From Prorocentrum cordatum (lineage: Eukaryota > Sar > Dinophyceae > Prorocentrales > Prorocentraceae): a stretch of 64,000 nt of DNA. Under the pieces are notes generated by a model. That model saw nothing but the letters and a program-made list of their open reading frames with translations. It made no database searches and was not told where the DNA came from. Positions 39,035 through 57,518 of the stretch are shown here, one piece after another; the first letter of the stretch is position 1; every line of letters starts with the position of its first letter. Both the position numbers and the translations under genes were made by a program. Where the stretch lies: positions 33,704 through 97,703 of the forward strand of contig CAUYUJ010001732.1 of the NCBI GenBank assembly GCA_963575745.1, read 5' to 3'.

Positions 39035-39069
39035 CCTGAAGGCCCTCGGCCTTACTAATTGTTAGCAGC
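39035..39069 (+). repeat. Left terminal inverted repeat
   Basis: Twelve bases pair perfectly with the right end. The next 23 pair imperfectly, sharing TTA, TAA and GTTAGC blocks in the same order (13 of 18 aligned positions). Confidence 0.85.
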
Positions 39070-39219
39070 ACATGTAAGTAGGTTATAAGTAAGTTGCAAC
39101 TAGGTTGCAAGTAAGTTATAACCATTAGTAATGTTTCTAAGTCGGCTAACTCGGGCGGTGCATTTGGAGGTAGAGAGCTTGAGTTAGCGAAGTTGCTAAC
39201 TTCGCTAACTTTTACATGC
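39070..39219. repeat. Left subterminal repeats
   Basis: AT-rich DNA with repeated GTAAGT(T), GGTTATAAGT, GTTGCAA and GTTAGC/GCTAAC words, for example AGTAAGTTGCAACTAGG. Such repeats inside the TIR are typical transposase-binding sites; binding is inferred. Confidence 0.6.
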
Positions 39220-39457
39220 TTACTTGAAAACAGAGCTGCTGCATCGGGTTTTCCTTGGATGTTGCCTCCAGAAACGCATGCATGTGTTTGGATTTTCGGG
39301 ATCACGCATATCGGAAATCATGATCCAGACTTGCGTGCGAACGCATTCAGAATATTGTATCGAGCGTTACAAGAATGTTGTGCATTGCAAATGCAACATA
39401 TCATTTCGAATTCGCAACCCTCTGTTGCACATGTTTTTGAATGTCACTAGAGTTTGG

Positions 39458-39479
39458 GCTCCAGCCGTTTGGGCGAGGA
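39458..39479 (+). promoter_or_regulatory. DinoSL-like relic upstream of gene A
   Basis: Contains AGCCGTTTGGGC. It matches 12 of 22 spliced-leader positions without gaps, concentrated in the AGCC-TTT-GGC core, and lies about 40 bp before the gene A ATG. Alone this is weak; support comes from the similar relics before other genes of the element. Confidence 0.4.
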
Positions 39480-39519
39480 TTGCTGCTGGCGCTTGTGGCG
39501 TCCTCCTGCACGCGGCGTG

Positions 39520-41217
39520 ATGAACGCCTCCCGTGAACAGCAGATCGCGGAGGTCCGCCCCAAGATGATGGCCATCAAGGACATGTACTTGCATCCTGAT
39601 GCAGCGGTGGTCTCATTACTTGAAGACGTATGCAGCATTGCAAGAGGCATAGACTGCCTGAGGGTAGAAAAAATACACTCGAAGTATATGATGGTGTGCA
39701 CAGAGAATCGTTACGGAGATGGAATCATTCCGAGCGAGGTTATGGATTTGATTTCCAAGATCTTCAAAAATGGATTCAAGAACTCAGCCCTCCAGAATCC
39801 AGCTTGCATGGAACTTCCACCAGTGGGCACGCCTGAGTACAAGACAATCAAGAACTTCAATTTCAAAATAATGGAGGACTCAGCGGGCCAGCTGCCGCAG
39901 TATGATTGCGATGCAAAGTTCGCATCCTACGCGTGCGGCCACACATCCATGGGTTTGCGTTGCATCAACGCAGGGGTTCCAGTACCCACGGTCATGCCAG
40001 AGCGTTTCGACAGAATCTCGCACCAAGGGAAATTGTCACTGACGAGGTTACGGGAGGTTCAACCAGACTACGCTAAGGCGTGTGACGAAGGAATTGAGTG
40101 GAAGGTCTTTCGGTACGAGTTCGTGAAGGAGTTCCCGTGGATTAGTAATCTTGCTCAGGAGGCTGGCAATGCAGGCCAACAAATTGCCAGATGCGAATCT
40201 CGCATGAGTCTCATGTACAAGATCGCAGCAATTGCCAACCGACACCACACGGGTGGCACCATGATCGATTGGGATAGTGTGATCCGCGAGGCGACTCGCG
40301 CAGGCTCTCTCTTTCCTGGGGAGATCGATGGCTTAGTAAAATATGTGAAGGAGTTGTCTGGCGGCCTCGGCAACCCGATCTTTCTGAACGAGCTTCGCGA
40401 CTTCTCGCGGCAGCTGACCTCCCAGTGCGTGGTCACGGGTTCAATGGCGAAGTCTCTCGCCGAGGTGCAGATCAAGCATGAGGGGGCCGCTGCGACATTC
40501 AAGCTCGCATGCATGAAGGCGATGACATGTGCGACGGGTAAGTTCGCGAGGGATGGCCATCAGATGCTTTTGAAGCCAGGCGACGTGACCGCCTTGTCGA
40601 GCGATAAGAAGTCTACGATTGTAATGGTGGCCGATGAATTTCTTCAGAAAGTGCGACAGATCGCATGCGGTGAGGGCATCACGGCAGACACGGTCGCCTA
40701 CGGCACCATCGTGGGATTGACTGACGTTCGCGTAGTTCATTTCGTTTTCAACAAGCCCGATGAGCGCTTAGGCACTTGCAAGACGCTGAATGACATCGGG
40801 GTCAGCTTCACCACCGCGTTGGCAACGCACGTTGGCAAAGCAGTTGCTAGCCCATGGAAGCAGATCGGTCGCGAGGGCGTATCCAAAGCCGTGACAGGGC
40901 AGGCGCGTAGCTCAGATGTGAAAGAGTACACCGCTTCGGGCAAGTGGTCGAACCAAGTGGATAAGCTCAGTGACAAGGGGTTTGAGGTTGGCGCCAAAGT
41001 CGCCTTGGCGAGCGACACCTTGGGTGAGAACATTTACGAGCTGATCTCCATCGACGCTGCGACTGGCGTGAAGTTGAAGCTTCAGGCCACGGGCAGTGCG
41101 ACATGCCACCCCATCGACGACTTCTTACGTGGCAAGTTCGTCGTGTCCACGATTATGAAGGACAGTCTTGCGACCTCGTCGCAATGCATGTGGAATGCAT
41201 ATACACCCCCACACCTT
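39520..41217 (+). CDS. Gene A, main exon: unrecognised large cargo protein
   Basis: The frame from ATG 39520 gives 566 residues of well-mixed composition, very unlike the surrounding repeats. It has regular helical stretches (LREVQPDYAKACDEG, EIDGLVKYVKELSGG, LGNPIFLNELRDFSRQL) and several Cys residues, and no transmembrane segment or signal peptide. No catalytic motif is recognised. The nominal stop at 41218 is probably intronic: a strong acceptor at 43441 opens a compatible downstream exon. The donor is not identified, but lies before about 41215. A role in mobilisation, DNA binding or host interaction would be a guess. It lies at the left end of the transposon and reads inward. Confidence 0.7.
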
Positions 41218-41439
41218 TGAAGTCTCGTTCGTCGTTCCCTCATCTCATTTGGCTCTGCGTCGTCATGTATCATTCCCAACCATCCTGTGGTGTTGGGTCC
41301 TCGTTTTGAAGAGACGTCGCCCCGCGTTCCTTCCTTCCCGCTGCCCCCTCCCTCCTCCCATCTTCATCATCATCGTCATCATCCCCATCATCGTCATCGT
41401 CATCATCATCTGTCGTCATCATCATTATCACCACCCATG

Positions 41440-42640
41440 TCGGCACACCCCTCACACGTTTCGTGACCCCATAGGGAGCTCCACCGAAGGTCCCAGTGCG
41501 TGTGCCCGCATGCGTCCCGCACACTCATTTCGGCACACCCCTCACACGCTTCGTGGCCCCATAGGGAGCTCCACCGAAGGTCCCAGTGGGTGTGCCCGCA
41601 TGCGTCCCGCACACCCATTTCGGCACACCCCTCACACGTTTCGTGGCCCCATAGGGAGCTCCACCGAAGGTCCCAGTGGGTGTGCCCGCATGCGTCCCGC
41701 ACACCCATTTCGGCACACCCCTCACACGTTTCGTGGCCCCATAGGGAGCTCCACCGAAGGTCCCAGTGGGTGGCCCGCATGCGTCCCGCACACCCATTTC
41801 GGGCACACCCCTCACACTCGTGGCCCCATAGGGAGCTCCACCGAAGGTCCCAGTGGGTGTGCCCGCATGCGTCCCGCACACACATTTCGGCACACCCCTC
41901 ACACGTTCCGCGGCCCTATAAGGCCCAACCGAAGGTCCCAGTGGGTGTGCCCGCATGCGTCCCGCACACCCATTTCGGCACATCCCTCACACGTTTCGTT
42001 TCGTGGCCCCATAAGGATCTCCACCGAAGGTCCCAGTGGGTGTGCCCGCATGCGTCCCGCACACCCATTTCGGCACACCCCTCACACGTTTCGTGGCCCC
42101 ATAGGGAGCTCCACCGAAGGTCTCAGTGGGTGTGCCCGCATGCGTCCCGCACACCCATTTCGGCCCACCCCTCACACGTTTCGTGGCCCCATAGGGAGCT
42201 CCACCGAAGGTCCCAGTGGGTGTGCCCGCATGCGTCCCGCACACCCATTTCGGCACACCCCTCACACGTTTCGTGGCCCCATAGGGAGCTCCACCGAAGG
42301 TCCCAGTGGGTGTGCCCGCATGCGTCCCGCACACCCATTTCGGCACACCCCTCACACGTTTCGTGGCCCCATAGGGGGCTCCACCGAAGGTCCCAGTGGG
42401 TGTGCCCGCATGCGTCCCGCACACACATGTCGTCCCACCCCTCACACGTTTCGTGGCCCCATAGGGAGCTCCACCGAAGGTCTCAGTGGGTGTGCCCGCA
42501 TGCGTCCCGCACACCCATTCCGGCACATCCCTCACACGTTTCGTGGCCCCATAGGGAGCTCCACCGAAGGTCCCCGTGGCGCAGTCCACATGCGTCTCCT
42601 TTGCCCAGTACAGCGTTACGTGGCCCCATATGGAGCCCCA
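41440..42640 (-). repeat. 90-bp tandem array, 13 units plus a partial
   Basis: Units start near 41450, 41531, 41621, 41711, 41799, 41887, 41976, 42071, 42161, 42251, 42341, 42431 and 42521. Most are exactly 90 bp and over 95% alike. Read on the minus strand a unit has GAGGGGTGTGCCGAAATGGG and GGTGGAGCTCCCTATGGGGC, so it is the reverse-oriented relative of the repeats at 14095-14420 and 15530-16245. As 90 is a multiple of three, frames stay open across it. Confidence 0.95.
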
Positions 42641-42650
42641 CCGCAGGTCC

Positions 42651-42985
42651 CAGCCAGCCAGCTAGCTCTCTTTGCTCCGCGCAGCGGGCGACCCGCGCGC
42701 GTCGCTGGGACTCCTCCGGGGCGACCTGCGCGCGTCGCGGGGGCTCCGTGCTGCGTTCCGCCCAGCGCCTCGCTCGCCCGTCGTCGCTCTGCCCAGCGGC
42801 AAGAGCCTTGCCCGCTATCAGCCAGCCAGCTAGCTCTCTTCGCTCCGCGCAGTGGACGACCCGCGCGCGTCGCTGGGACCCCTCCGGGGTGACCTGCGCG
42901 CGTCGCGGGGGCTCCGCGCTGCGCTGCTCCCGCAGCCTTGGACTTTTGAGTGCGCGGGCAAAGAGGGAGTAAAGGAAGGGGAGGA
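42651..42985 (+). repeat. 168-bp tandem duplication
   Basis: CAGCCAGCCAGCTAGCTCTC starts at 42651 and 42819, each followed by GCGACCCGCGCGCGTCGCTGG-like sequence. The second copy ends near 42940. Confidence 0.85.
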
Positions 42986-43289
42986 AGCGGGCGCGATCCT
43001 CGCGGGGGGGCGCGCCGACATTGGCGTCGCGGCGCGCGGGCGATGCCGTCGGGGAGTCCCGGGGAAGCTCCTTGCGGCGGCCACGCCCAGCGTCACGAGT
43101 ATTCAGAGGCAGTCGTTGTCAAACTATTGGCATTCATACACATTTGCACCACGCTTTGTCATATTCGCATTCATGCACGTAGACTCGCTCGCACGCAGAT
43201 CATTCACAGTCAGACGCACGCGCGCAGATTCACCCGCGCTCAGTCTCCCTACGTACTCAGATCAATCGTTTTCGTTCACTTTGTGTACC

Positions 43290-43350
43290 ACGCCACTCAT
43301 GTCGGCACGCCCCTAGCACGGTTCGTTGCCTCATAGGGATCGCCACCGAA
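43290..43350 (-). repeat. Isolated unit of the 90-bp family
   Basis: CACTCATGTCGGCACGCCCC and CATAGGGATCGCCACCGAA are a diverged single unit, in the same orientation as the main array. Confidence 0.65.
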
Positions 43351-43441
43351 AAAATGAATCACTATTGCGGTACTCGCACCTGCATATGGTTGGGTCCCTC
43401 GTCAGGCTAATCTTTTTTTTTTCCCCGCTGCTCCCCCATAG

Positions 43442-44076
43442 AGGAAACGATCGACAAGTTCGCTGATCATGGCCCCCTCAAGTCTGTCGACTACCAGTGG
43501 GGTATCGAGGCGGTCAAAATCAGGCTGGCCTTGGATGGTGTATACAGCCAGAACGGCAACTGTCTCAAGTACTTGAGTGGCGTGCTTACGCCTGTTAAGC
43601 TTCGTGCTCTCACCGTAACGCGTTCGTTTGAGGCTGAAGAGCTGGTGCTTGCCCCACTCTCTTCGGCAATCTACTTGAAGAAGCAGACTGATATAGTTCA
43701 GTGTGGGCATGTGTTCATGAAGACATACAAGGACCCCAAGGGATTGACGTTCAATATCGTGTTGGCCCCCAGTGGTGGCATCAAGATGCCTAAGGCTGAG
43801 ACGAACACTGGCGTTGGAGGGCTGAAGCAGGCACCGTCTTCGCTCGTCATCCCCTTCTGGCTCGTACAGGATTCAGGTGAGCACGGCACCCCCAACATGA
43901 AGCTCAAGACCGTCAAGTCTACAGCTGTCCCATCAGTGTATGTACCAATTTTGACAAACAAGTGCGCCATCAACAAGGGCGATGTCCTTAGCGCCCAGCT
44001 GGCATCGCTCATGCCCAAGCGCAAGGTAGACGATGTGCCTGCTGCGCCCGCGGCTAAGAAGGCCAGGAAGCGATGA
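43442..44076 (+). CDS. Gene A, last exon with nuclear localisation signal
   Basis: Opens after the best splice acceptor in the window (T-run, C/T-run, CCCCCATAG). The frame reads ETIDKFADHGPLKSVDYQWG, continues for about 210 residues with beta-rich patterning (TFNIVLAPSGGIKMPK, SSLVIPFWLVQDSG) and ends in KRKVDDVPAAPAAKKARKR. This is a bipartite basic cluster typical of nuclear import signals. No ATG start is available near the acceptor, and it lies collinear and in the same strand as the 39520 exon, so I join them as one gene of roughly 770 residues. Function unknown; nuclear location inferred. Confidence 0.65.
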
Positions 44077-44230
44077 GGCTCGCGTGTTGGCAGCATCGGT
44101 TACACATACCATGTGTCGTGGGGGGTGTTTATGAAATGTATGAAAGCATCGTCGGTATCGTTCCTCTGCAATCGTTGCATCATTGCGTCGACACGCATCG
44201 GACTCGTCTGCAATTGTCCATTGCATCGGC

Positions 44231-44246
44231 CCGCAGGCGTTTGGCT
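44231..44246 (+). promoter_or_regulatory. DinoSL-like relic upstream of gene B
   Basis: CCGCAGGCGTTTGGCT aligns to the first part of the spliced leader with one gap and about 12 matches, about 50 bp before ATG 44295. Confidence 0.3.
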
Positions 44247-44294
44247 GTGTCCAAGCGAGTGCACGCTGCATCTGCGCACGCACTGCAGCTGCAG

Positions 44295-44640
44295 ATGGCA
44301 GTGGGCGTGCAGCTCCGCACGGTCATCGAGGGGGGCGGCCTTAAGGATCGCGAGCCACGGGCCCCGAGGGCGGTGATGCATACGGCAGGGGGGCTCTTCG
44401 TGGAGCTGTCGAGAGCGGATAGGCAGCTGCAAAAATTTATATCTGTGCCCAACCCCACCAAGAGCCAATCGCCTCTGGCGACAACTTCGTTTTTCGATCA
44501 GATCTTGAAGATGCGCAACGCCGCTTGCACCGAGGCCATTTGGGGCCACTTGAAGCAGGCCGACCCATTGCTTCAGCAAGATTGCGACAGGGCCAGCGTC
44601 ATTAAGAACAATAGGAGTTCTCTGGATATGTCGCAATCGT
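44295..44640 (+). CDS. Gene B, first exon: unrecognised cargo protein
   Basis: The frame from ATG 44295 reads MAVGVQLRTVIEGGGLKDRE, then FVELSRADRQLQKFISV, FFDQILKMRNAACTEAIWG and LLQQDCDRASVIKNN. It has helix-like patterning and balanced composition up to about 44620, after which the frame turns into GGA-type sequence that looks intronic. An upstream ATG at 44073 in the same frame overlaps the gene A stop, but the sequence between is less protein-like. I choose 44295, right after CTGCAG. No family recognised. Confidence 0.5.
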
Positions 44641-45182
44641 GGACGCTTCGCGTATTCCCACCAGGGGAGGAGGACGGATAGGAGGAGGATGATACATTGG
44701 ATGATGAGGTGGAGTGGCGGGGGAGGGGGGCGAGGAGGAGGGGCTGAAACAGAGGGGGTTGGTGGAGGAGAAATGGGAGGAGGGAACGGGGGGGAGGAAG
44801 GGGCATAAGGATGACAAAAAAAGGATGAGGAGGAGGAATGGGAGATGCCTTAATTCGCTTGCGTGAATAGGCCGCTCTTGGACCACTCTTGGATCGATCT
44901 CTTGACCTTGAGACTTCTTGGGCAATCGTGGATCGCGTGATATCTTGGACAAGCTCGGGCAATCTTGGGTCGCGTGATATCCATGCCTGCATGTTGAGGC
45001 ATCGCGTGATATTGGGACATATCCGTGGACATCTTGAAGTATATATGAGCCCCTCTTGGAACCACCGTCCAGGCAAACCACTCCCCCAAGGGGATGAAGG
45101 GCGTAGAGGAGAACGCATTCTAGACATGTGCCCTAACGGGATGGTGGTCTACCAGAAACTGTCTCGATATATATGCCCGCAG
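44641..45182 (+). other. Gene B intron (inferred)
   Basis: GGA-rich 44660-44845, then repeats of TCGCGTGATATC(T)TGG at about 44932, 44970 and 45003, ending at ATATATGCCCGCAG (acceptor 45181-45182). Confidence 0.5.
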
Positions 45183-45772
45183 TCCAGTGCGACCATGGTG
45201 ATGAGCATTTGCATCACGATGCCGTTACCTTGAAGCTTCTGTTTGAGCTGAATGCTACTAAGAAGGTGTGGGTCGAATGTACGCCAGCGGGACTTGAGTA
45301 CATACGGGTTGCATCTATCGCAGCAGCGGTTTCATGCAGTCAGGAGGCAACACATCGCTTGCGGTCAGCACCAGCAGGGGTGGAAGGTGTGAAATGCGAC
45401 AAACGTCGCAGGACGGTGTTCATGGTGGTCGACGGCAAGCGTCTGCAGGGGCGAGTGGACGATTGGACTCCCGCGTACATCAACAACGCAGTCCAATCCC
45501 TTCGTGATCGCTTAGATAACGAGGCACGTGATGAGGCTGAAGCTGATGGGTCCGAGGAGTACTATGACCCGCCAGTCGCAGCAGGCGATGGCTCGCCACC
45601 AGGCGATGGCTCGCCACCAGGCGATGGCTCGCCACCAGGCGATGGTTCGCCAGGCGATGGTTCGCCGCCAGGTGATGGTTCGCCAGGCGATGGTTCGCCA
45701 CCAGGTGATGGGCCGCCCTCTGTTTTCACTCGCCGACGGGAGATGCGCCAGACGACGCTTAGCTTCCAGTAG
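45183..45772 (+). CDS. Gene B, second exon with GDGSPP repeats
   Basis: The frame after the acceptor reads VQCDHGDEHLHHDAVTLKLL, then KKVWVECTPAGLEYIRVA, a basic patch KCDKRRRTVFMVVDGKRLQG and helix AYINNAVQSLRDRLDNEARD. A low-complexity region of nine GDGSPP/GDGSP units (45590-45712, 12-15-bp DNA repeats) follows. The last residues are RREMRQTTLSFQ. The QTTLSF end resembles, but does not fully match, a PCNA-interacting peptide (Q-x-x-L-x-x-F-F); a link to replication forks is speculation. The exon joins 44295-44640. Confidence 0.6.
45590..45712 (+). repeat. GGCGATGGCTCGCCACCA minisatellite
   Basis: Nine in-frame units of 12 or 15 bp coding for GDGSP(P). Confidence 0.9.
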
Positions 45773-45846
45773 CTCCACTCCCTCTTCGCCTTCCCACCTC
45801 CCCTTCCCTCTCCCTCCAATCTCTATTCTATTTTTGCCTCGCGTGC

Positions 45847-46878
45847 TCAGTCCGAATCTGGCCCCGCTGGCGGCGGGGACCCAGTAACAGAACTCAGTTC
45901 AAGATGCGGAGGGCCATCGTCGCGCATGCCGCTGTTCGGCACATCGGCGTCCCTGCCCATGCTCATGCCCTTGCCCTCGTCGGGGCCCTTGCCGTCATCG
46001 TAGCCCCCGCCGCTGTCGAGGGCCGTCGCCTTGCCCTTACCACCGTCGTTAATGCTCTTGCCACCGTTGTAGCCCTCGCCATCGTCGTAGCCCTGGCCAC
46101 CGTCGTAGACCTTGTCACCGTCGGTGCTGCCCTTGCTACCATCGTAGCCCTTGCCACCGTCGTAGTAGCCCATGGCCTCGTCGTCGATGCCCGTGCCACC
46201 GTCGTAGCTTGTACAGCCGCGACCGATGCCATCAGCACCCTTGCCATCGTCGTAGCCCTTTTCGTAGCCCTTGTCGTAGCCCTTGTCGTAGCCATTGACG
46301 TAGCCCGTGTCGTAGACCGCGTCGTAGCCCTTGCTCGAGCTGCCGTACGGGTCGTAGCCTTTGTCGCTGCCCTTGCCGCCGTCGTAGCCCTTGTCGAAGC
46401 CCTTGCTCGAGCTGCCCTTGGCGCTGCCCGTGCCACCGTCGCCCTTGTCGTCGGCCTTGCCGCTGTCCGACATCATGTCCTGCAGCCCGTCACGCTGCTC
46501 CTTCGCCAGCCTGGTGTGGCCCTTGCCGCTGTCGCCGTCTTTGTCGCGGCCCTTGCCGCTGCCGTCATTCTCGCGGCCCTTGCCACTGTCGTAGCCCTTG
46601 CCCTTGCCACCGTCGTAGCCCTTGCCCTTGCCATCGTCGTAACCCTTGCCACCGTCGTCGTAGCCCTTGCCATCGCTGTCGTAGCCCGTGTCGTAGCCCT
46701 TGTCGTAGCCTTTGTCGTAGCCCTTGTCGTAGCCTTTGTCGTAGCCCTTGTCGTAGCCTTTGTCGTAGCCGCTGTTGTCGTAGCCACTGTTGTCGTAGCC
46801 AATGTTGTCGTAGCCCTTAATCAAGAGCTCGGTGACGTCGAGCAGCCTGTCGGTGATCCGCCGCTCCCGCTGGAGCTC
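45847..46878 (-). CDS. GYD-repeat protein 1 (minus strand)
   Basis: Read on the minus strand from the acceptor-like CCATACAG at 46878: ELQRERRITDRLLDVTELLI, then a tract of (GYDKGYD) and related units, a non-repetitive motif RLAKEQRDGLQDMMSD-GKAD, a second GYD/GKG-rich tract and an acidic end. Gly, Tyr, Asp and Lys make up most of the chain, as in phase-separating low-complexity proteins; I infer an RNA- or condensate-related role only by composition. No ATG is in this exon. A possible first exon with ATG lies near 47122-47050, separated by the CCT tract. It is the inverted paralogue of the gene at 47771. Confidence 0.6.
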   Translation of the reverse strand, partial: ELQRERRITDRLLDVTELLIKGYDNIGYDNSGYDNSGYDKGYDKGYDKGYDKGYDKGYDKGYDTGYDSDGKGYDDGGKGYDDGKGKGYDGGKGKGYDSGKGRENDGSGKGRDKDGDSGKGHTRLAKEQRDGLQDMMSDSGKADDKGDGGTGSAKGSSSKGFDKGYDGGKGSDKGYDPYGSSSKGYDAVYDTGYVNGYDKGYDKGYEKGYDDGKGADGIGRGCTSYDGGTGIDDEAMGYYDGGKGYDGSKGSTDGDKVYDGGQGYDDGEGYNGGKSINDGGKGKATALDSGGGYDDGKGPDEGKGMSMGRDADVPNSGMRDDGPPHLELSSVTGSPPPAGPDSD

Positions 46879-46894
46879 CTGTATGGAGGGCGAA

Positions 46895-46915
46895 AATCCG
46901 CCGACCTCCCTCCTC

Positions 46916-46947
<32 letters not shown>

Positions 46948-47045
46948 TCCTCCTCCTCCTCCTCCTCCTCCTCCTCCTATTCCTTCTCCTCCTCCTCTTC
47001 CTCCTCATCATCCTCGTCTTCCTCCTCGTCCTCCTCATCCCCCTT
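46895..47045. repeat. CCT tract between the GYD genes
   Basis: CTCCTC triplets with a C-run; on the minus strand it would lie in an intron of GYD gene 1. Confidence 0.9.
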
Positions 47046-47770: not shown

Positions 47771-49042
47771 ATGGCGGACGAGACCGCGATGACGCTGCTC
47801 CTGGAGGCGGCGGAGGATCTCAGCCAGCGGCGGCGCGCCGCGGCCGCCAAGGTCTTGCAGCCCACCAGCAAGGTGGCCCCTCGGCCGCCAAGCACGCCGC
47901 CGACGGCGAAGGTCTTGGCGAAGTACGATCGCTCGCGCGTGGCCGACGGCTTGCTCGATGATCTCGAGTTGGCGCCCGCGCTGGATCCCGAGTTGAACTC
48001 GTTCCAGGGCCTGCAGGAGTTCATGGGCGACGTCGATGGCGACGACACGGGCTACGACTACGCCAGCTACGACGGTGGCAAGGGCATCACCGACGGTGGC
48101 AAGGGCTACGGCGGGGGCAAAGGCAGCTCGAGCAAGGGCTTCGACAAGGGCCACGACGATGGCAAGGGCAGCGGCGAAGGCTACGCCATCGACAAGGGCC
48201 GCGACAAAGGCTACCACGGTGACAGGGGCGACGTGGGCTACGACGGTGGCAAGGGCGACAAGGGCTACGACCGCCGCTACGACCCGTACAGCTCCAAGTG
48301 GTATGACCACCACAGCTCGTGGTACGACCGCGACGACGATGACTACGACAACAGGTGGTACGACCGCAGGCGCTGGGGCGACTACGACAAGGGCTCGAGC
48401 AAGGGCTACGACAACAGAGGCTACGACAGCAAGGGCTACGACAAGAGTGGCAACTACCAGCGTGGCTACGACAACCGTGGTTACAACAACCGTGGCTACG
48501 ACAACCGCGGATACGACAGCAGTGGCTACGACAACCGTGGCTACGACAACTACGGCAACAGTGGCTGCGACAGCCGTGACTACGACCGCAAGGGCGACAA
48601 GGGCTACGATCGCAAGGGCGACAAGGGCTACGATCGCAAGGGCTGCGACGTCGGCAAGGGCTACGACGGTGACACGGGCTACGGCGGTGATCCAAGCTAC
48701 GACCGTGGCGATACAGGCTACGACAGTGGCAAGGGCATCGACAGTGGCAAGGGCCACGACGGCGGCAAGGGCGATAAAGGCTACGACGGCGGCAAGGGCT
48801 GGCGCGAGGAGAAGTCCCGCGGCGGGCGCCACATCAGGCTGGCGAAGGCCCTTGCCACCAAGGAGCAGCTGGACGGGCTGCAGGACCTGATGTCGGACCG
48901 CGGCAAGGCCGACTACGTCAGGTGGAGCAAGCGGACGCACTGGCGCATATGGGTGGAGGAAAACAATACAGATCTAGTTCTATCGGGCCCCCTCATCCCT
49001 CCTCCTTCAACGGTTCTTACCAAGGACGAGGGGGAAGGATGA
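47771..49042 (+). CDS. GYD-repeat protein 2
   Basis: 423 residues from ATG 47771. Residues 1-95 are ordinary: MADETAMTLLLEAAEDLSQR, a Lys/Pro region, then LLDDLELAPALDPELNSFQG. The next 250 are repeats of GYDxxGYD, GYDGGKG and YDRK, with a WYDRRRW patch. The end has RLAKALATKEQLDGLQDLMSD-GKAD, the same motif as GYD protein 1 and proof of common origin. The final residues after GKADYV may be intronic. It was chosen at 47771 because sequence before it is a Ser-rich translation of CAG repeats. Disordered, tyrosine-rich; RNA or condensate role is inference. Confidence 0.65.
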   Translation: MADETAMTLLLEAAEDLSQRRRAAAAKVLQPTSKVAPRPPSTPPTAKVLAKYDRSRVADGLLDDLELAPALDPELNSFQGLQEFMGDVDGDDTGYDYASYDGGKGITDGGKGYGGGKGSSSKGFDKGHDDGKGSGEGYAIDKGRDKGYHGDRGDVGYDGGKGDKGYDRRYDPYSSKWYDHHSSWYDRDDDDYDNRWYDRRRWGDYDKGSSKGYDNRGYDSKGYDKSGNYQRGYDNRGYNNRGYDNRGYDSSGYDNRGYDNYGNSGCDSRDYDRKGDKGYDRKGDKGYDRKGCDVGKGYDGDTGYGGDPSYDRGDTGYDSGKGIDSGKGHDGGKGDKGYDGGKGWREEKSRGGRHIRLAKALATKEQLDGLQDLMSDRGKADYVRWSKRTHWRIWVEENNTDLVLSGPLIPPPSTVLTKDEGEG

Positions 49043-49250: not shown

Positions 49251-49262
49251 ATGGTGGGGGTT

Positions 49263-49555
49263 GTCGTATGTAAGATTCTAACATACGACGCAGTTGTCGT
49301 ATGTAAGATTCTAACATACGACAAAGTTGTCGCATGTAAGATTCTTACATACGACACCGTTGTCGTATGTAAGATTCTAACATACGACGGATGTGTTAAT
49401 AGAATCCTTATGATATATAAGAGCGAGATGTCGTATGTACGATTCTTACATACGACAACGTTGTCGTATGTAAGATTCTGACATACGACAGATTTGTCGT
49501 ATGTAAGATTCTGACATACGACAGATTTGTCGTATGTGAGATTCTGACATACGAC
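49263..49555. repeat. Array of eight 27-bp palindromes at 33-bp period
   Basis: Units start at 49263, 49296, 49329, 49362, 49430, 49463, 49496 and 49529. Each has arms GTCGTATG and CATACGAC around TAAGATTCTAA or variants, so each unit is itself a hairpin or a two-fold site. Spacing is 33 bp, except one 68-bp step where a unit seems lost. Spacers are 6 bp. Changes within arms are few (one C for T, one T for A), which suggests selection or recent expansion. It lies in non-coding DNA inside the transposon. Confidence 0.93.
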
Positions 49556-50600
49556 ACCCAGGGTTTGAGCTCATGTTTAGCGTAAACTTCGAGGGTCTCC
49601 ATCTCGCTCGTGGTCGACGTTGCGCCTAGAATTGGCTTGTCTGCTTGGCTGCGCTGCCCGCGGCTGCGCTGGATCATGTTGATAAGTGATGCATGAGCGT
49701 GGCGTGAGCGAGAACAAGGGGAAGTGGGATGAGAGGAGGATGCGCGGGAGAAGGAGGACAAGGAGAAGGAGAGGGGGGAGGATTCTGAGGAGGAGGTGGG
49801 GGGTGAGGAGGAGGAGGGGGAGGGGAAGGCCCATCCTCCCCCTCATCCTCATCCTCCCCCTCCTACCTTTATCCTCCTCCTCCTCCTCCTCCGCCGCCGC
49901 CTCCTCCTCCTCCTCCTCCTCTCTCCTCCGCCTCATCACCCTCCTCATCTTCCCCCACCTCCTCCTCCTCCTCTGCCTCCTCTTCCTCATCCTCATTCTC
50001 CTCCTCATCATCCTCATTCTCCTCATTCTTACTCCGTCTCATTCTCACCCTCTTCATTCTCATCATGTCTCCTCCTCGTTCCCGCCGTCGCCGTCGAAGC
50101 CGTCGCCTGCGCCGTCATCTGCGCGCGCGGTGCAGGAGAGGGCGGCGGCCACCGTGACGACCACGATTGAACGACAACGAGGATGAGGAGGAGCAGGAGG
50201 AGGAGCACGAGGAGGAGCAGGACAAGGAGCACGCGGAGGAAGAGGGGGACGATGGGGAGGAGGAGGAGGAGGAGGAGGAGGGGGAAGAAGATGAGGAGGA
50301 GCAATTGCCATGGCGGCTGCGATAGCGACGGCGACGGCGAAGAGTTGGTGGCGACGAGTTGGCTGCGACGAGTTCGACGGCGGCGGAGACGACGGCGGGG
50401 GCGTCTCATTCTGCTCCTCCTCCTGCTCGCCCTCCCCCTTCTCCTCATCCTCGTCCTCCTTCTCCTCCTCCCTATCCCTCCTCACCATTCTCATCCCCGT
50501 CATCCTCCTTCTCCGTCTCATTCACCTCCACCGCCTAACCCTCCTCATCCTATTATTATTTCTCCTCGTCCTCATTCGTATTCGTATCATCGGTCTCTCC
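49556..50600. repeat. Alternating GGA and CCT tracts
   Basis: GGA 49735-49830, CCT 49840-50060, GGA 50180-50305 and CCT 50400-50570, with 100-bp islands between. Neighbouring tracts are complementary and could pair as long inverted repeats. No gene is supported. Confidence 0.75.
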
Positions 50601-50926: not shown

Positions 50927-51069
50927 GGACGGGGTTCAGACGTGGCGTTGACACGCCGTTGCTAAGTGCGACCGTTCGCCCAACCGCTTGAGACCATGCG
51001 ACCGCAGTCGCAACGCCAAGCCATTACACAACCAATTTCACACCCTGACATCATGATAGTACATACCTG

Positions 51070-51250
51070 CGTGTCAACGCAACCGAACGCGCATGCATAC
51101 GACTGCATTGGGCGTTGCCTCAACGCCCCCCCCTCCCCCCCCCCCCCCATAGTGTCACAAGTGCGCCCTTCGACGCGAACTACTCGCAGCCGATTGCAAT
51201 GCGTTTCAACACAACCGAACATGCATACAACTGCATCGGGTGACGCCCAA
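51070..51250 (+). repeat. Direct repeat CAACCGAACNNGCATGCATAC
   Basis: Two copies of about 48 bp, near 51070 and 51205, with CAACNCAACCGAAC and CATACNACTGCAT blocks. Confidence 0.7.
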
Positions 51251-51254
51251 ACGT

Positions 51255-51476
51255 TTACGTTCTAACCAGCAAATATATTTCGACGTGAACGGATTGCAAC
51301 CACTTGCAACATGTCATGCATGAGATACTGGCTGCCTTGCGGTCCGCCGTTTTGGACATCTTCTGGCAATGCTGCTTGTGCCTGATCAGGGTGTCCAACC
51401 TTTCATTGAAGTGCTCCGTGTCCTCCTCGCGGTGCTTGGCACGCAGCGCCTTCAAGTCGGCTGACATGGCAGGCAT
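51255..51476 (-). CDS. Small coiled-coil-like protein 2
   Basis: 73 residues on the minus strand from ATG 51476: MPAMSADLKALRAKHREEDT, then EHFNERLDTLIRHKQHCQKM, and a Cys-containing end (ISCMTCCKWLQSV). The charged helical pattern resembles the other two small proteins of the element in style, not clearly in sequence. A weak spliced-leader-like CAGCCGAGTTGGTTGAG lies upstream on the minus strand near 51541. Function unknown. Confidence 0.4.
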   Translation of the reverse strand: MPAMSADLKALRAKHREEDTEHFNERLDTLIRHKQHCQKMSKTADRKAASISCMTCCKWLQSVHVEIYLLVRT

Positions 51477-51861
51477 AGTCGCGTACACACGCGCGCGCGC
51501 CGCAGCTTACAAGCTGCGTTCTCTCAGCCCTCAACCAACTCGGCTGCGTGAAAACGCATGTAGTCTGCGACGCGGTCGCATGGCATGAGTGCCAACCATG
51601 TGAACACACATCACTGCCCTACTCATACCCCCCCCCCCCCCCCACTACACGAACGCCGTGATCGGGCACTCCCGTTGCATGTCCACCCCCAGCCGCCTCC
51701 TCATCTCGACCCCTCTTCTGTTCACACCTCTCGCGCCCCCCCCCCCCCCAGCTTACTACATGTCGCCAACGATGGCGGGGCTGAACGTTTGGCAAACCGT
51801 CAGCAGCATTTGTGGTTCATTCGCCCACCTTTGCGAACCAGTTCACGCGTGGCTTACGCGC

Positions 51862-51881
51862 CCCCATTTGTGGTTCACGTG
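51862..51881 (+). promoter_or_regulatory. Weak DinoSL-like sequence upstream of small protein 3
   Basis: CCCCCATTTGTGGTTCACG aligns with the leader 3' part with one inserted base (about 12 of 17); a similar GCATTTGTGGTTCA lies at 51808. The start ATG is only a few bases downstream. Confidence 0.25.
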
Positions 51882-51884
51882 CCC

Positions 51885-52321
51885 ATGGGAAAATCAGCGA
51901 AGACGATCGCGATGGAAGCGCAGGTGCGCTTTGAGCTGCAGGATGAAAAGCAGGAACGCCAGCGGTCAGTGAAGACTGCCAAGGCGGCATTGAAGCATGC
52001 CAAAGCAGCGAAGACGCAGGCTGAGAAGAAGGCAGGCGGTTGTTAACTAACAACAACACAAGGGCCCCTCGAGGCCAGGGGGGAGGGGATGGGCTCTCGA
52101 GCCCACCCCCTTAGTCAATGGCCCCATCGGCGTCGCCAGTCCCACCCGCCTCCGTGCGATCGCCCCCCTCCCTCCCCCCCCGATAGGCAGAGAGGAGGTT
52201 CAATGCGTTTTTGGAGAGCAAGGACGCGTGGATGAACGCGCTGCTCGACGCGGATGATGCGAGCGCGGCCCACGTTCGGGCCGAGACTGAGCTGGCGCGC
52301 GCCGAGCGCGATGCCCGCTAG
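51885..52321 (+). CDS. Small coiled-coil-like protein 3 (two exons)
   Basis: Exon 1 from ATG 51885: MGKSAKTIAMEAQVRFELQD, then QERQRSVKTAKAALKHAKAA up to about 52035. Exon 2 from acceptor CGATAGGCAG (52189-52190): RRFNAFLESKDAWMNALLDA then AAHVRAETELARAERDAR and stop 52319-52321. Both halves are long amphipathic helices rich in Ala, Lys, Glu and Arg, so a coiled coil is likely. The intron has the C-rich content and strong C/T tract seen elsewhere in this window. The donor is uncertain (GCAGGCGG area). Function unknown. Confidence 0.5.
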
Positions 52322-53232
52322 GGGTGTGGGGGCGACGGACGACGGGTGGAGGGGTCAGAGAAAAAACCTGCATGCATCAATGCAAGATGAGTCTGGGATG
52401 ATAATGTCGGCATGATAGCGCAGGTGCCTCGTCCTCCTCCTCAGCTTCCCCCTTCTCCTCCTCCTCCCTCCTCCTCCGCCTCCTCATCCCCCCTCCCTCC
52501 CCATCCTCATCCTCATCCCCATCCTCGTCCTCCCCATCACATCATTCCCTCATCGTCCCTCCTCGTCGTTGTCCTCCTGTTGCTGCTGGTGCTGATGCTC
52601 TTGCCCATCCTACTACGCTACTAAGCCGTGCCCCCCCCCATCGCTCCCTCACAACTGCTTCGCACTCTGAATGGCATTGGTGCTATGCGTTTCCGCTTTT
52701 TCGCGTCATAGGATCATCCGACGCCTCACGATATCTGTAGGATGACGCAGCACCAAAACCCCAAGAGGAACCACATATAGAGCCCCAAGGCCGCAACGGG
52801 GAGGAGGAGAGGGATGAGGAGGGGAAGATGAGGAGGATGAGGCGGAAGAGGAGGAGGATACAGACTTTGGGATGCTCCCGACTGGTGAGGTTGAATCCAG
52901 AACGCCAGTTCTGTGAGTGATGTCTTGGACCGTCCCCTCGGCATCAGCGCGCGCGCACTTAACGAAAATGATGATGAGACATATGATGATAACAACTGCA
53001 GGTGGTCTGCGCTCTTCGTTCGAGTAGGATGGGCTGGCGGGGATACGCGACGCGGCAACACTTACATCGCCATATACGCGTCGGTTCTATGTATGCCAAG
53101 ATGCATGCAACCCGTTGCAGGTGGTAGACTCGCACTGCCATCCGAAACCAATCTTCGATGCGTGGGGCATTGCAAGTTGGCATCAGTTGGTGTCGGGTTC
53201 TCGTTTCGAATATAGATCACACAGGCCCGCGT
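52322..53232. other. Region with CCT tract and no supported gene
   Basis: 52428-52590 is CCT-rich and 52795-52860 GGA-rich. A frame at 52913-53215 begins MSDVLDRPLGISARALNEND but has no support beyond being open. Confidence 0.35.
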
Positions 53233-53254
53233 CGCATAGCCATTTGGGCTCGAT
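53233..53254 (+). promoter_or_regulatory. DinoSL-like relic upstream of gene C
   Basis: Contains TAGCCATTTGGGCTC. It matches 16 of 22 leader positions without gaps. The 14-mer TAGCCATTTGGGCT is identical to the relic before the transposase at 55173, including the same T-to-G change. Confidence 0.6.
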
Positions 53255-53264
53255 CGCGATCGTT

Positions 53265-53327
53265 CGCGATCTATCGCGAGGCGCGATCTTTCGCGAGGCG
53301 CGACCTATCGCGAGGCGCGAGGCGCGA
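53265..53327. repeat. 17-bp TCGCGAGGCGCGAYCTA repeat
   Basis: Units start at 53274, 53291 and 53308, exactly 17 bp apart, each containing the palindrome TCGCGA, with a partial fourth unit. Confidence 0.85.
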
Positions 53328-53367
53328 AGGTTCGGAACTGTCGTCTTATGACGACGGTTCCGAACCT
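53328..53367 (+). promoter_or_regulatory. Hairpin containing the gene C start codon
   Basis: Arms AGGTTCGGAACTGTCGTC and GACGACGGTTCCGAACCT pair over 18 bp with one mismatch around the loop TTAT. The ATG of gene C (53348) begins in the loop. In an mRNA this would hide the start codon region; control of translation is inferred. Confidence 0.75.
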
Positions 53368-54500
53368 CCGCGCGGAACTGCAGCACATGTCAGAGTGGGT
53401 ATCGACACAAATCGCATGTGGCCTGTGCCCATCAGCCGTGGCCCAGCACCAGTACGACAGCTTCCTCATGAAGATCAACAACCTGTCACAGATCAGTACT
53501 GACGAGGCGACAGCCTTGGTGAAAACAATCAGGGAGCACTCGCTGAACACTTGGACTCAAGAGAACATCGCACGCTTGTGCCAGAGCGTCGGGACCAAGA
53601 CAGGCAAGTTGCCAATGCCAAGCGGATACAAGCAATGGCAAGATATTAGCATTGCATCGAGGGTCTTCACGGCGAGCGAGATCAAATCGCTGAAGAGCGG
53701 CGACCTGAGTGAGAAGGCGTGCATACGCCTGGTCGCCGCTCGGTGCAAGCTTATCGGCGCCCACACGCTCTCCGAGAGCTCCAAGGGCAAGATGGCCGCG
53801 CTCGTGGCGTGGGGCAGCGGCAAGGGGCATGGGGCGATTGGCTCAGGCTCCTCGGAGAGGTGAAGGGTGCCATCTCCAAGGCCATCACGTGCAAGGGTTG
53901 GTCCACGCTTGGGTACGCCACGGTGTGGAACTTCGACCGCATCGAGGACATGTCGGCTGAGCCGTGGTGGACATCAGCTTACAAGGACGATGGGCCCGCC
54001 TTGGAGGAGATCCAGACGGACGCGCCAGACTACGCGAGGAAGTCGAGCAGGCGTTACGCGGCGAAGACCTCGCTTGCAGCTGCAGCGCCCCCAATGACAG
54101 CCCCAGACCCTGCGGCTGGCGGGCAGTTGCAAGTCATGCAGGCCCTGTTCGGTGCACCGCTGTGCGCGGCGCTCTTCGCCAACTCGGCGGCCGCGGCTCT
54201 CAGGCCGCCCGAGCCGCCTGCGCAGCCGCGCGTGGAGCTGGAGCCCCGAAGCCAAAGCTCCCGCCGCGCGAGGAGCCGCAGCAGGAGCCGAAGCTTCCGC
54301 CGCGCGAGGAGCCGCGCGATGAGCCGCGCGATGATGAGCCCGAGCCAGACCTGACCGACGAGGAGGAGAAGCTCAGGGCGCTCCTCGCCAAGAAGGCCAA
54401 GACCGCCAAGGCGAGGAAGCGCCCCTCCGCGGCCGGCGAAGGCGTCGGTGACGCCGAGGGCGGGGCAGGCGTCGAAGACGCCGAGGGGCTGTGCCAATGA
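53348..54500 (+). pseudogene. Gene C: unrecognised cargo gene with two frame changes
   Basis: Frame 1 (53348 to about 53820) starts MTTVPNLRAELQHMSEWVST and has mixed helical sequence such as EATALVKTIREHSLNTWTQE and ACIRLVAARCKLIG. Protein-like sequence then continues one frame over (DWLRLLGEVKGAISKAITCK to LEEIQTDAPDYARK, about 53820-54240). A third frame adds PKPKLPPREEPQQEPKLPPR, an acidic DEEEKLRALLAKKAKTAKAR segment and the stop at 54498. Either the copy is broken twice, or there are small introns or sequencing errors. Basic and Pro-rich C-terminus suggests a nuclear or nucleic-acid-linked protein; no family recognised. Confidence 0.55.
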
Positions 54501-54751
54501 AGAAGGCGCGGCCCCCTGCCATGCGGCGACCCGCGGCTGCCGTGCCAAAGCCCGCCGTGCTGCCCAAGCCGCCGACGTGCGAGTGCAACGCGCCGTACAG
54601 GCGCGGCTACGTGATCTACAAGCCTTCACAGAAGGTGTTCAGGGCCGTTGTGGGGAGGGCAGATCGCCGCGTCCGCTTCGACCGCAATGCGACGATGAAT
54701 CGCATTGAGGCTTGGAGCGCGGCGCTGGCGTGGATCGACGCCAAGTGTTAG
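54497..54751 (+). CDS. Gene D: small basic protein overlapping gene C stop
   Basis: 84 residues from ATG 54497, which overlaps the gene C TGA (54498-54500) in ATGA. It starts MKKARPPAMRRPAAAVPKPA, a Lys/Arg/Pro/Ala tail of the R-P-A-A kind, then a compact domain CECNAPYRRGYVIYKPSQKV, FRAVVGRADRRVRF and a final helix RIEAWSAALAWIDAKC. A basic tail plus small alpha/beta domain fits DNA or RNA binding, but I recognise no family. The lack of its own spliced-leader relic and the overlap suggest it is expressed with gene C. Confidence 0.5.
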   Translation: MKKARPPAMRRPAAAVPKPAVLPKPPTCECNAPYRRGYVIYKPSQKVFRAVVGRADRRVRFDRNATMNRIEAWSAALAWIDAKC

Positions 54752-54907
54752 GTGCTCGATGCGGGGAGGGGGAGGACCAGGGGGTTGTTGAGGACCATCA
54801 GGACTGGGAGCTCGCATCGCAGCTGCAGCGCGGCGGTGGGCGGCGCCACATCGACGAACTCCCTCTTGCTTGTATGGCGTTGCAACATGATGTCTAAAAC
54901 ACAAGTC

Positions 54908-55110
54908 TGTTGCGATCTTTTCATCGCAAGTCGCATGCATCAATATGCAACACTCCTTTCTGTTGCGAACTACCGTCGCACTTCGTATGCATCAATCTGC
55001 ACCTACAGGTCCTTCTGATGCGACGTCGTATCATGCCATATGCATCGATATGCAACGTGCACTTCTGTTGTGATCTACCGCCTCGCTGCATTCAGATGCA
55101 TCATGCAGCT
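54908..55110 (+). repeat. Four 50-55-bp tandem repeats before the transposase
   Basis: Units begin TGTTGCGATC (54908), TGTTGCGAAC (54961), TGATGCGACG (55016) and TGTTGTGATC (55066). Each carries ATGCATCRATATGCA or a variant. They are diverged and lie directly upstream of the transposase gene. Confidence 0.8.
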
Positions 55111-55168
55111 TGCCCCTACCATAACGCGACGCATGCATCCTATGATGCGCATTGGCATCGTTATCGAG

Positions 55169-55190
55169 TCTGTAGCCATTTGGGCTGAAA
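55169..55190 (+). promoter_or_regulatory. DinoSL relic directly upstream of the transposase
   Basis: 18 of 22 positions match the dinoflagellate spliced leader without gaps; the core is TGTAGCCATTTGGGCTGAAA. It ends two bases before the ATG at 55193. This is the best of the relics. Relict leaders in genomic DNA are known to arise when trans-spliced mRNAs are copied back into the genome. Confidence 0.7.
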
Positions 55191-55192
55191 CC

Positions 55193-57274
55193 ATGGCCGC
55201 GTCCGCCGCCAGGAAACGCAAGGCGGATGAGGCGCTGGTGGAGCTCCACAGGGGCTCATACCTGTCACAGCGTGCTCTGTCGGGTGTCCTAAACTATGTG
55301 CGAGACCATGGGTTGCCCGACAATATTTCACGGAGCTCACAATGCAGGGCAAACGAAAACATCATTGCCAAAGAGCCGAACGCATATGGGAACGTCTTGC
55401 GTTGCATAGACACGCCTTTAGTCAGTGGTAGAACTTTCGAGAACTGGGTGTGCTGTCCTGGGCCATTTTTGTATTCCTGCTGCAAGGCTGGCGCTCCAGT
55501 CAGGGAGATGTTTCGCCGCTCACTTCAGGAGCGCCCATGCAGCTTGGCGTCGCCGTGGCACATCATTTTATATTTCGATGGTATTTCACCGCGAGACCCC
55601 CTGGCGAAGGGGAAAGATTATCGGGGGGGTGATGCTGTTTACTGGTCGTTCGCTGAGTTCGACGAGTCCTTGGGTAACGAAGATGCGTGGTTCACGCTTA
55701 GCACTGCGCGGTGCGCAAAAATAAAAAGCATCCCAGGTGGCATCGGGCAGTGCATCAAGATGACCCTCAAAGGAGTTTTTTTTAATTCTGCTGGTGGTTT
55801 CAATTTTGAGACGAGCGGTGTTACATTAGACGTGTCAGAGAACGGCGACGCAACGTCGCACGCGACGATCGTCGCGAAGCTGTCGTGCGTCATAGGGGAC
55901 GAAGAGGCATTGCGGGAACTACACATGAACAAAGGGCACGCTGGTTCCAAACCCTGTGCGTTATGTCGCAACGTCTTGAATAGAAAGGTTGATTATTTGA
56001 CATATGGTGTATCTGGTTTCTTTGTGACAGACGCGTGCTTGGATGCGTCAAAGATACGCAGAAACGATGACGCGACAATCATCGCGATCCTGGAACGACT
56101 TCGACCCGATTGGGATAAATATCAGCGGGGGGAGTTTTCAGAGGGGCAGTTCACGACCATCACACAGCACAAAGGATGGAACTTCCACCCCGAACACATA
56201 GCGCTGGACCCAGGTTTGCGATATCTCCCTGCGTCATTCATTTGCTTTGACTGGATGCATATTTATTTTGTGTCTGGTATATTCGACAGAGAAGTAAAAG
56301 TACTTTTAGGGCATGCGCAGTTCAAGTGTTTGTGTGATGCAATGGAGTTGCATGAGTATTTCATGAAGTGGACGTGGCCGAGTAAACACCACTCAGCCGC
56401 AACTGTATGGGAGACTGGTGAGCTCCAAGCAAGTGCCTCAGAAGAGATCTCTGCGTTGCCTGTTTTGTGCAGGTATATTCGGCAAGTAATTGCCATGCAT
56501 CCTTCATCGGATCAAGTGGCCCCCCAGATCGCAAGTATGCTGGCATTGCAATATGCCGTTGACATAATCATCACGGCGGCGCGGCGGCTTCCAGTCACGA
56601 CCGCGCAGATAGAGTCAGCGATAGTGAAACATCTTCGGTGCCATCAGGACGCATATGGTGAAAGCTATTGGGTGTATAAGCACCATATGGCAACACATTT
56701 GCCTGAAATGTTTGAAAAACATGGGTCGCTCAGTTGCTTTGTCCAGGAACGCAAGCACAAAAACGTAAAACGTTTCGCCAAAGACCACATGTGCAAGAAG
56801 TGGCCAGAGAAGGCTCTCATGGTCCAACTCACTGCGCAGCACGCGCACGATTTAAAGACCATGCGTGTTTCACCTGGCTTAGTCGACCCAACGAAAGCAA
56901 CGCAGAAGCTGCTGAATGCGTTGAAACGCATGTGCCCTGGGACGCAGACAGCCGTCTCCAGCATCGAAGCCATGACAGATTTCGGCCGCATCAAGCGCGG
57001 TGATATCGTACTTCTGGGGTCGGGCGGGATGCATGCGGCAATGCAAGTGTGGTTTCACGTGAAATGCGACGATGGCGAGTCGCAGGTGCTTGTCCAGCAG
57101 CTTGCAACTAAGCATGTGAACGCCGCTGAAGGTTTTTCCAGACACATCTTTTTAGATGATACAGACCCTGTTCTGATGCCTCTGACCTCTCTGAAAGCTC
57201 CTGTGATTTACAGGAAAATAGAGAACGACATCACGTGCATTTGGCCAGTAGAATACAAATCGCGATGTTGCTAA
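55193..57274 (+). CDS. DDE-type transposase (CMC/Plavaka-like layout)
   Basis: 693 residues from ATG 55193 (AAACCATGG context). Motifs in order: IILYFDGISP with Asp129, the zinc-like pair KPCALC (Cys255, Cys258), FICFDWMHIYFVSG with Asp353, and HLPEMFEKHGSLSCFVQERK with Glu519 in an ERKHK box. Asp-Asp-Glu with a Cys pair after the first Asp and D-W-M-H at the second is the layout of large CACTA/Plavaka-type transposases. It should cut and join the element ends as a metal-dependent enzyme in the nucleus. It lies about 245 bp from the right TIR and reads outward. The frame is intact, so the element may be recently active. The exact family needs profile searches. Confidence 0.75.
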   Translation: MAASAARKRKADEALVELHRGSYLSQRALSGVLNYVRDHGLPDNISRSSQCRANENIIAKEPNAYGNVLRCIDTPLVSGRTFENWVCCPGPFLYSCCKAGAPVREMFRRSLQERPCSLASPWHIILYFDGISPRDPLAKGKDYRGGDAVYWSFAEFDESLGNEDAWFTLSTARCAKIKSIPGGIGQCIKMTLKGVFFNSAGGFNFETSGVTLDVSENGDATSHATIVAKLSCVIGDEEALRELHMNKGHAGSKPCALCRNVLNRKVDYLTYGVSGFFVTDACLDASKIRRNDDATIIAILERLRPDWDKYQRGEFSEGQFTTITQHKGWNFHPEHIALDPGLRYLPASFICFDWMHIYFVSGIFDREVKVLLGHAQFKCLCDAMELHEYFMKWTWPSKHHSAATVWETGELQASASEEISALPVLCRYIRQVIAMHPSSDQVAPQIASMLALQYAVDIIITAARRLPVTTAQIESAIVKHLRCHQDAYGESYWVYKHHMATHLPEMFEKHGSLSCFVQERKHKNVKRFAKDHMCKKWPEKALMVQLTAQHAHDLKTMRVSPGLVDPTKATQKLLNALKRMCPGTQTAVSSIEAMTDFGRIKRGDIVLLGSGGMHAAMQVWFHVKCDDGESQVLVQQLATKHVNAAEGFSRHIFLDDTDPVLMPLTSLKAPVIYRKIENDITCIWPVEYKSRCC

Positions 57275-57483
57275 CATGATGCGCTGCGGACCGTCGCGTT
57301 TGCCCCAGGAAGATAAAAACATCTGAAGGCCCCTGAGCAGATCCAAATCGACGAAGCGCCCAATCATGATGCCCCAATTTCCAACTACATGAGATGCAAA
57401 ATCATAACATAAACATTTAAAAAAACAGCTTCAAACTGGCCAAACCTAACTAGCTATAACTCCGTTAATAACAATTAGAAGTT
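57275..57483. other. Right subterminal region
   Basis: AT-rich DNA with words TAACTAGCTATAACTCCGTT and ATAACAATTAGAAG that mirror the left subterminal set in reverse orientation. Confidence 0.55.
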
Positions 57484-57518
57484 CCGCTAACTGTTACTAA
57501 CTACGCAGGGCCTTCAGG
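57484..57518 (-). repeat. Right terminal inverted repeat
   Basis: AGGGCCTTCAGG is the exact reverse complement of the left end; GCTAACTGTTACTAAC pairs imperfectly with the next part of the left TIR. Confidence 0.85.

What the first reader, a model, noticed from the sequence alone, without database searches (positions are those of the whole stretch)
39035..57518. An 18.5-kb TIR transposon that carries a multi-gene cargo
The ends (12-bp perfect inverted repeats plus imperfect extension), the TA duplication, the host repeat continuing in register on both sides, and a DDE transposase next to one end together define one mobile unit. It holds at least eight other genes or ORFs, some with introns. 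Cut-and-paste elements of this size with this much cargo are rare, and the cargo (genes A-D, GYD proteins, coiled-coil ORFs) matches nothing I can name.
Basis: partly seen in the sequence, partly recalled or inferred. Interest (0 to 1): 0.95.

Follow-up and report, generated by a model that had tools for sequence, protein, structure and literature searches.

The report
Multi-gene RAG1-like transposon in a dinoflagellate
This stretch is one copy of a large, many-copy jumping DNA element in what looks like a dinoflagellate alga; it carries a fixed set of about six genes, one of them a transposase that resembles the enzyme behind antibody-gene shuffling, and a second family in the same genome has the same genes in the same order.

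Summary
In detail: 39035-57518 is one mobile unit with 12-bp inverted ends and a duplicated target; five uninterrupted host-repeat copies in the window show the empty site. The genome (4.13 Gb, probably Prorocentrum cordatum) holds many copies: 40 of 40 scored left ends are identical over 101 bp; 91 gene-E matches were scored. Nine aligned copies differ by 0.5-2.4%.

Corrections: the duplication is 2 bp, mostly pyrimidine-purine in a C-YR-G target (flanks equal in 18 of 20; 107), not TA-specific. The usual element is about 16.4 kb; 41274-43415 is a nested satellite absent from ten other copies (65). A+B are one gene, and C+D are one gene (18, 119).

The 'cargo' is not recent cargo. A second family in the same genome (transposase 56% identical, 14.7 kb) has the same order: AB, CD, Gly/Tyr-rich protein, coils, E, transposase, plus the same CCTGAAGG ends, 11-bp end repeats and a 29-bp palindrome array (117-140). 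The transposase has a predicted RAG1/Transib fold with a C-terminal BAH-like domain (44). AB weakly resembles ParB. Cut-and-paste movement and the roles of the genes are inferred.

The parts
39035..57518 (.). Whole element, this copy (18,484 bp; 16,342 bp without the nested insert)
39033..39034 (.). Left TA of the 2-bp target duplication
57519..57520 (.). Right TA of the 2-bp target duplication
39035..39046 (+). Left terminal inverted repeat CCTGAAGGCCCT; the first 8 bases are shared with family 2
57507..57518 (-). Right terminal inverted repeat
39071..39125 (+). Left-end 11-bp repeats (GTTATAAGTAG-like, up to 3 mismatches) at element positions 37, 48, 59, 70, 81; family 2 has them at 37, 48, 59, 70, 80 and elsewhere
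39145..39210 (.). Four subterminal AGTTAGC motifs (element positions 111, 148, 161, 170), same positions in 10 of 10 fetched copies; a fifth lies near the right end
39520..41160 (+). Gene AB, exon 1 (end approximate); weakly ParB-like fold
41274..43415 (.). Nested satellite insert (90 bp x 12.8 and more) in the AB intron, absent from the 10 other copies read
43448..44076 (+). Gene AB, exon 2 (start approximate)
44058..44650 (+). Gene CD, exon 1 (limits approximate)
45137..45772 (+). Gene CD, exon 2 (start approximate)
45847..47004 (-). Inverted GY-type ORF; no match in the family-2 copy
47771..49042 (+). GY gene: Gly/Tyr-rich repeats between N- and C-terminal parts that match family 2 (43% over 51, 50% over 44 columns)
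49262..49556 (.). Array of eight 29-bp near-palindromes, spacing 33 bp except one larger gap; counterpart in family 2
51258..51506 (-). Coil ORF, 54% over 50 aa to a plus-strand frame of family 2
51885..52046 (+). Coil ORF, match in family 2 (39-46%)
53348..54751 (+). Gene E, frameshifted here; a 468-aa ORF in 5 of the 8 fetched copies in which it was found
55193..57274 (+). Transposase T (693 aa), RAG1/Transib-like; D128, D235, E518, C254, C257, H497, H501 (residue 1 = second codon)
56870..57232 (+). Part of T encoding the C-terminal BAH-like domain (model residues 559-679)

Best explanation
The locus is a recent insertion of an autonomous multi-gene DNA transposon. SHOWN: defined ends; a 2-bp duplication in a C-YR-G target; many near-identical copies; a gene order AB-CD-GY-coils-E-T shared with a second family at 56% transposase identity; shared end repeats and a shared palindrome array; a predicted RAG1/Transib fold with the D-D-E, C(2)C and H(3)H residues and a BAH-like C-terminal domain. 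INFERRED: T binds the CCTGAAGG ends, cuts the element out and joins it to C-YR-G sites; one or more of AB, CD, GY and E are the element's own helpers that bind the end repeats or the palindrome array, pair the ends or control expression; the BAH-like domain steers T through chromatin. Single copies decay after insertion and can be served in trans.
Against: No excision and no polymorphic empty allele was seen. Among family-1 copies the changes look nearly neutral (pN/pS T 0.97, A 0.92, E 1.61), so the recent copies show no selection on these genes. T is open throughout in 3 of 9 aligned family-1 copies (two of the nine have N gaps in it). Only one family-2 copy was read in full, and 2 of 10 others did not show AB or the left end where expected (132). 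E matches family 2 only over its first 235 residues by BLAST (117). No protein is shown to bind the palindromes or end repeats.
Confidence: 0.85

Rival explanations
1. One reading: a transposon that has captured host genes as passenger cargo.
For: No Pfam family reaches its cut-off in the ORFs scanned; gene E has only two hits in the protein collection, so its distribution is narrow; family 1 has an extra inverted GY ORF.
Against: Content is constant in nine aligned copies apart from gaps and satellites, and the order is shared with a family at 56% transposase identity.
Confidence: 0.08
2. An integrated virus or Polinton-like element that integrates with a DDE transposase.
For: Size and multi-gene layout; a phage ParB-type protein is the first, weak hit of the AB model in BFVD.
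Against: No viral family in Pfam above its cut-off (the two virus-named rows, CoV_nucleocap E 0.12 and VP4_helical E 0.15, are far below cut-off); no relative of T in viral contigs (17 pattern matches, none confirmed); 2-bp duplication.
Confidence: 0.04
3. The palindrome array acts as RNA hairpins (for example 3' of the GY transcript), not as a protein-binding DNA array.
For: It lies about 220 bp (family 1) and 260-270 bp (family 2) past the GY stop, and two of 14 pair positions changed on both sides between the families and stayed paired.
Against: Equally expected for a dimer-binding DNA site; only two lineages; one pair position is mostly unpaired in family 1.
Confidence: 0.35
4. A segmental duplication or assembly artefact rather than transposition.
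For: C16033 and C2558 share a 30-base left flank; four of ten copies are cut by runs of N.
Against: 31 of 32 left flanks distinct, equal 2-bp flanks in 18 of 20, empty paralogues.
Confidence: 0.02

Closest known systems
CMCT clade of DNA transposons (EnSpm/CACTA, Mirage, Chapaev, Transib, Plavaka, ESTA, Lanisha) with RAG1; PMC12730594 (passages and section 16 seen)
   [quoted passage not shown] RAG1-like; TSD within the 2-5 bp reported for the clade.
   Different: Ends are CCTGAAGG, not the CA..TG that the paper gives for most cases; no Pfam match; BAH-like C-terminal domain; multi-gene set with conserved order; host looks like a dinoflagellate.
ESTA (EnSpm-like with TA TSDs, from the same paper on fungi)
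   Same: RAG1-like transposase, 2-bp duplication, at least one further gene aboard.
   Different: Target is mostly YR, TA in 5 of 32 left flanks; no TET/JBP among the ORFs scanned.
RAG transposons / ProtoRAG and Transib (PMC4411706, passages seen)
   Same: Nearest solved folds to T.
   Different: 5-bp TSD and CAC ends in those (recalled); no RAG2 match; BAH-like domain in the transposase itself.
En/Spm two-protein system, TnpA/TnpD (recalled)
   Same: Subterminal repeat motifs and further proteins beside the transposase.
   Different: More genes, other ends, no sequence match; a helper role is not shown here.
ParB-CTPase fold proteins (PMC12704722, passages seen)
   Same: The AB model's first BFVD row is a phage 'chromosome partitioning protein' (E 2.1e-3), and four of 50 VIA rows are ParB-type chains; the element holds a palindrome array.
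   Different: Scores are at background level; the GxxR motif was not located; no binding data; no ParB family in the Pfam scan.

Membership tests
CMCT / RAG1-like DDE transposases | D-D-E with C(2)C and H(3-4)H between second D and E | tested here: met
   D128, D235, C254, C257, H497, E518 invariant where covered, H501 19 of 20; H497-H501 is H(3)H
CMCT / RAG1-like DDE transposases | RAG1/Transib fold | tested here: met
CMCT / RAG1-like DDE transposases | 2-5 bp TSD | tested here: met
   2 bp, 18 of 20
CMCT / RAG1-like DDE transposases | CA..TG termini (stated for most cases, not strict) | tested here: not met
   CCTGAAGG in both families
ESTA | TA target duplication | tested here: not met
   TA in 5 of 32 left flanks
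ESTA | TET/JBP dioxygenase aboard | tested here: inconclusive
   no such family in 17 proteins or ORFs of the two families; not every frame was scanned
Tc1/mariner | TA-specific target | tested here: not met
Polinton/Maverick | Family B polymerase, integrase and capsid genes (recalled) | tested here: not met
   none in 17 proteins or ORFs scanned
Cargo transposon | Passenger genes that vary between copies | tested here: not met
   nine copies, same content apart from N gaps and satellites
ParB-CTPase fold (gene AB) | ParB fold | tested here: inconclusive
ParB-CTPase fold (gene AB) | GxxR motif and NTP binding | not tested
   no residue-level structural alignment was at hand
BAH domain (C-terminus of T) | BAH fold | tested here: met

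The most novel reading that the evidence does not exclude
A eukaryotic multi-component transposition machine: a RAG1-like transposase with a built-in chromatin reader, a ParB-like clamp protein (AB) loaded on a conserved palindrome array that acts like a centromere or loading site, a Gly/Tyr-rich disordered scaffold and a DNA-binding helper (E), kept together as one inherited unit over long divergence.
Probability: 0.2. Interest if true: 0.93.

Novelty: new variant of a known kind. Interest (0 to 1): 0.78.

Why it matters
Most eukaryotic cut-and-paste elements carry one or two genes (recalled). Here two families in one genome keep about six genes, their order, the end repeats and a palindrome array, which suggests that transposition or its control needs them. 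It adds a lineage to the group from which the antibody-gene recombinase came, with a BAH-like domain in the transposase where RAG uses a PHD finger on a second protein (recalled). With some 90 or more young copies it is a handle on how this large genome grows.

Tried and rejected

Considered and rejected: TA-specific element; recent passenger cargo; segmental duplication; virus. An earlier count said 19 of 21 matching flanks; the recount is 18 of 20 and is the one used. In one search the value for B is void (wrong frame), that for D is unreliable (the majority sequence leaves the frame in its repeats), and C was counted in three frames without known exon limits.

Literature: searches (nine of ten allowed), seen as listings with titles and the start of abstracts; some searches listed only part of their matches (19 of 20, 10 of 108, 8 of 9, 8 of 84, 8 of 18). 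None of the listed entries describes this element as far as those lines show. Passages seen: PMC12730594, PMC4411706, PMC11453091, PMC10666404, PMC12704722; section 16 of PMC12730594 in full. The library holds open-licence papers only.

Full report
WHERE. The window is part of a 4,128,499,153-base, 21,875-contig assembly (C1732:33704-97703). Size, contig count and the window's 60% GC fit Prorocentrum cordatum CCMP1329 (4.15 Gbp, 22,724 scaffolds, 59.7% GC; PMC10666404, passages). That name is my inference.

THE OBSERVATION. The joined flanks align, with small gaps, to five uninterrupted paralogues in the window; two carry GACTAG with one TA, two read GACTTG and one has a gap at the site. This is a direct view of the empty site.

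OTHER COPIES. The left 101 bases have 178 candidates in the genome; 40 were scored and all 40, the window included, are 101/101 identical. They are the best-ranked ones, so this does not show that the other 138 are identical. I read ten others over 20 kb each. All ten start at the same base and all ten lack window 41274-43415. The window and eight of them were aligned (C14808 and C14669 were left out because runs of N cut them early): pairwise divergence is 0.53-2.42%, and content is the same apart from indels of 20-60 bp, N gaps (C16033, C14266) and a satellite near the right end of C14988. Both ends were read in 20 copies: 18 have equal 2-bp flanks, and the other two differ by one transition (C13999 CG/CA, C14367 TG/TA). 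Left dinucleotides in 32 copies: TG 10, CA 7, CG 6, TA 5, AA 2, GA 1, GG 1; base -3 is C in 24 of 32; the third base on the right is G in 18 of 20. Of 20 right-end stretches asked for, three lay off the contig, and 3 of the 17 returned had no right end. C16033 and C2558 share their left flank, so 31 of 32 are distinct.

GENES. A and B are one gene: eight relatives of 755-807 aa cover both in one ORF, and the intron is about 140-150 bp in the three other copies printed. C and D are one gene: a single 288-aa ORF of family 2 matches both, 38% and 32%. Gene E is a 468-aa ORF in 5 of the 8 fetched copies in which it was found, broken in three of them and in the window. In the genome 91 E matches were scored, at 76-78% to P0042; 85 have no in-frame stop. 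E has only two hits in the protein collection, itself and P0042 at 76%.

SECOND FAMILY. Searching the genome with P0003 gave 65 matched stretches: 60 at 78-100% (a second family) and 5 at 58% (family 1). Forty-two of the 60 are nearly full length; 33 of these have no stop. One copy was read over 20 kb: 14,690 bp, ends CCTGAAGG..CCTTCAGG, CA/CA flanks in C-CA-G. In order and on the same strand it has AB (44% to A, 39% to B), CD, a Gly/Tyr-rich protein with matching end parts (43% and 50%), coil ORFs, E (38% over the first 235 residues; the C-terminal likeness is by eye) and T (55-56%). One coil exon is inverted between the families. Ten more family-2 loci were sampled at fixed offsets: AB in place in 8 of 10, left end in 7, right end in 9. 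Six of 7 with both ends have equal flanks (TG, CC and four CA); C20527 has CG/CA. C15550's left stretch ran off the contig; C6747 and C14655 showed neither left end nor AB at the expected place.

PFAM. Eight further proteins of the two families, intact E, family-2 AB, CD, GY, E and T, window C and the minus coil, gave no family above its cut-off.

CIS SIGNALS. AGTTAGC occurs 5 times in the two terminal 200-bp stretches and not in the other 63.6 kb; a best 7-mer count of 5 or more arose in 15 of 2000 dinucleotide shuffles. Eleven-bp repeats lie at positions 37, 48, 59, 70 and 80/81 in both families; 1000 mononucleotide shuffles of the family-1 end gave a mean of 0.26 and a maximum of 3 hits against 6. 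Family 1 has eight 29-bp near-palindromes 220 bp past the GY stop, found eight-fold in 8 of 10 fetched copies (none in the two cut early by N); family 2 has six full ones 260-270 bp past its GY stop. Two of 14 pair positions changed on both sides between the families and stayed paired; one position is mostly unpaired in family 1. These are two lineages, not fourteen independent events.

AGAINST. Among family-1 copies the changes look neutral (pN/pS near 1, E 1.61), so selection is inferred from the two-family comparison, not from the copies. T is open in 3 of 9 aligned family-1 copies. No movement was observed. The ParB reading of AB rests on background-level scores.

MECHANISM. Shown: insertion mostly at C-YR-G with a 2-bp duplication, fixed ends, shared gene set. 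Inferred: T cuts and joins; AB, CD, GY and E help or regulate; the palindromes and end repeats are their sites. The rival use of the palindromes as RNA hairpins stays open.

Noticed in passing
window 41274-43415; also C14988, C14266, C14669 loci: A 90-bp satellite sits in the AB intron here; arrays that match it at 72-88% lie in or beside three other copies, as if the satellite itself spreads.
   Followed up: partly
window 32853-39034 and 57521-58562: A host repeat in several diverged copies, the target of this insertion.
   Followed up: partly
window 45847-47004 and 47771-49042: Two GYD-rich ORFs in opposite orientation; only the plus one has a counterpart in the family-2 copy.
   Followed up: partly
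window 51258-51506: A coil exon on the minus strand whose counterpart in family 2 is on the plus strand: a local inversion inside the element.
   Followed up: no
family 1 versus family 2, genes AB and CD: The family-2 copy has AB and CD as single ORFs, while family 1 has an intron in each: intron gain or loss inside a transposon.
   Followed up: no
C13999 and C14178 loci: Two copies have the same right flank, apparently the same kind of satellite unit; C13999 has unequal 2-bp flanks.
   Followed up: no
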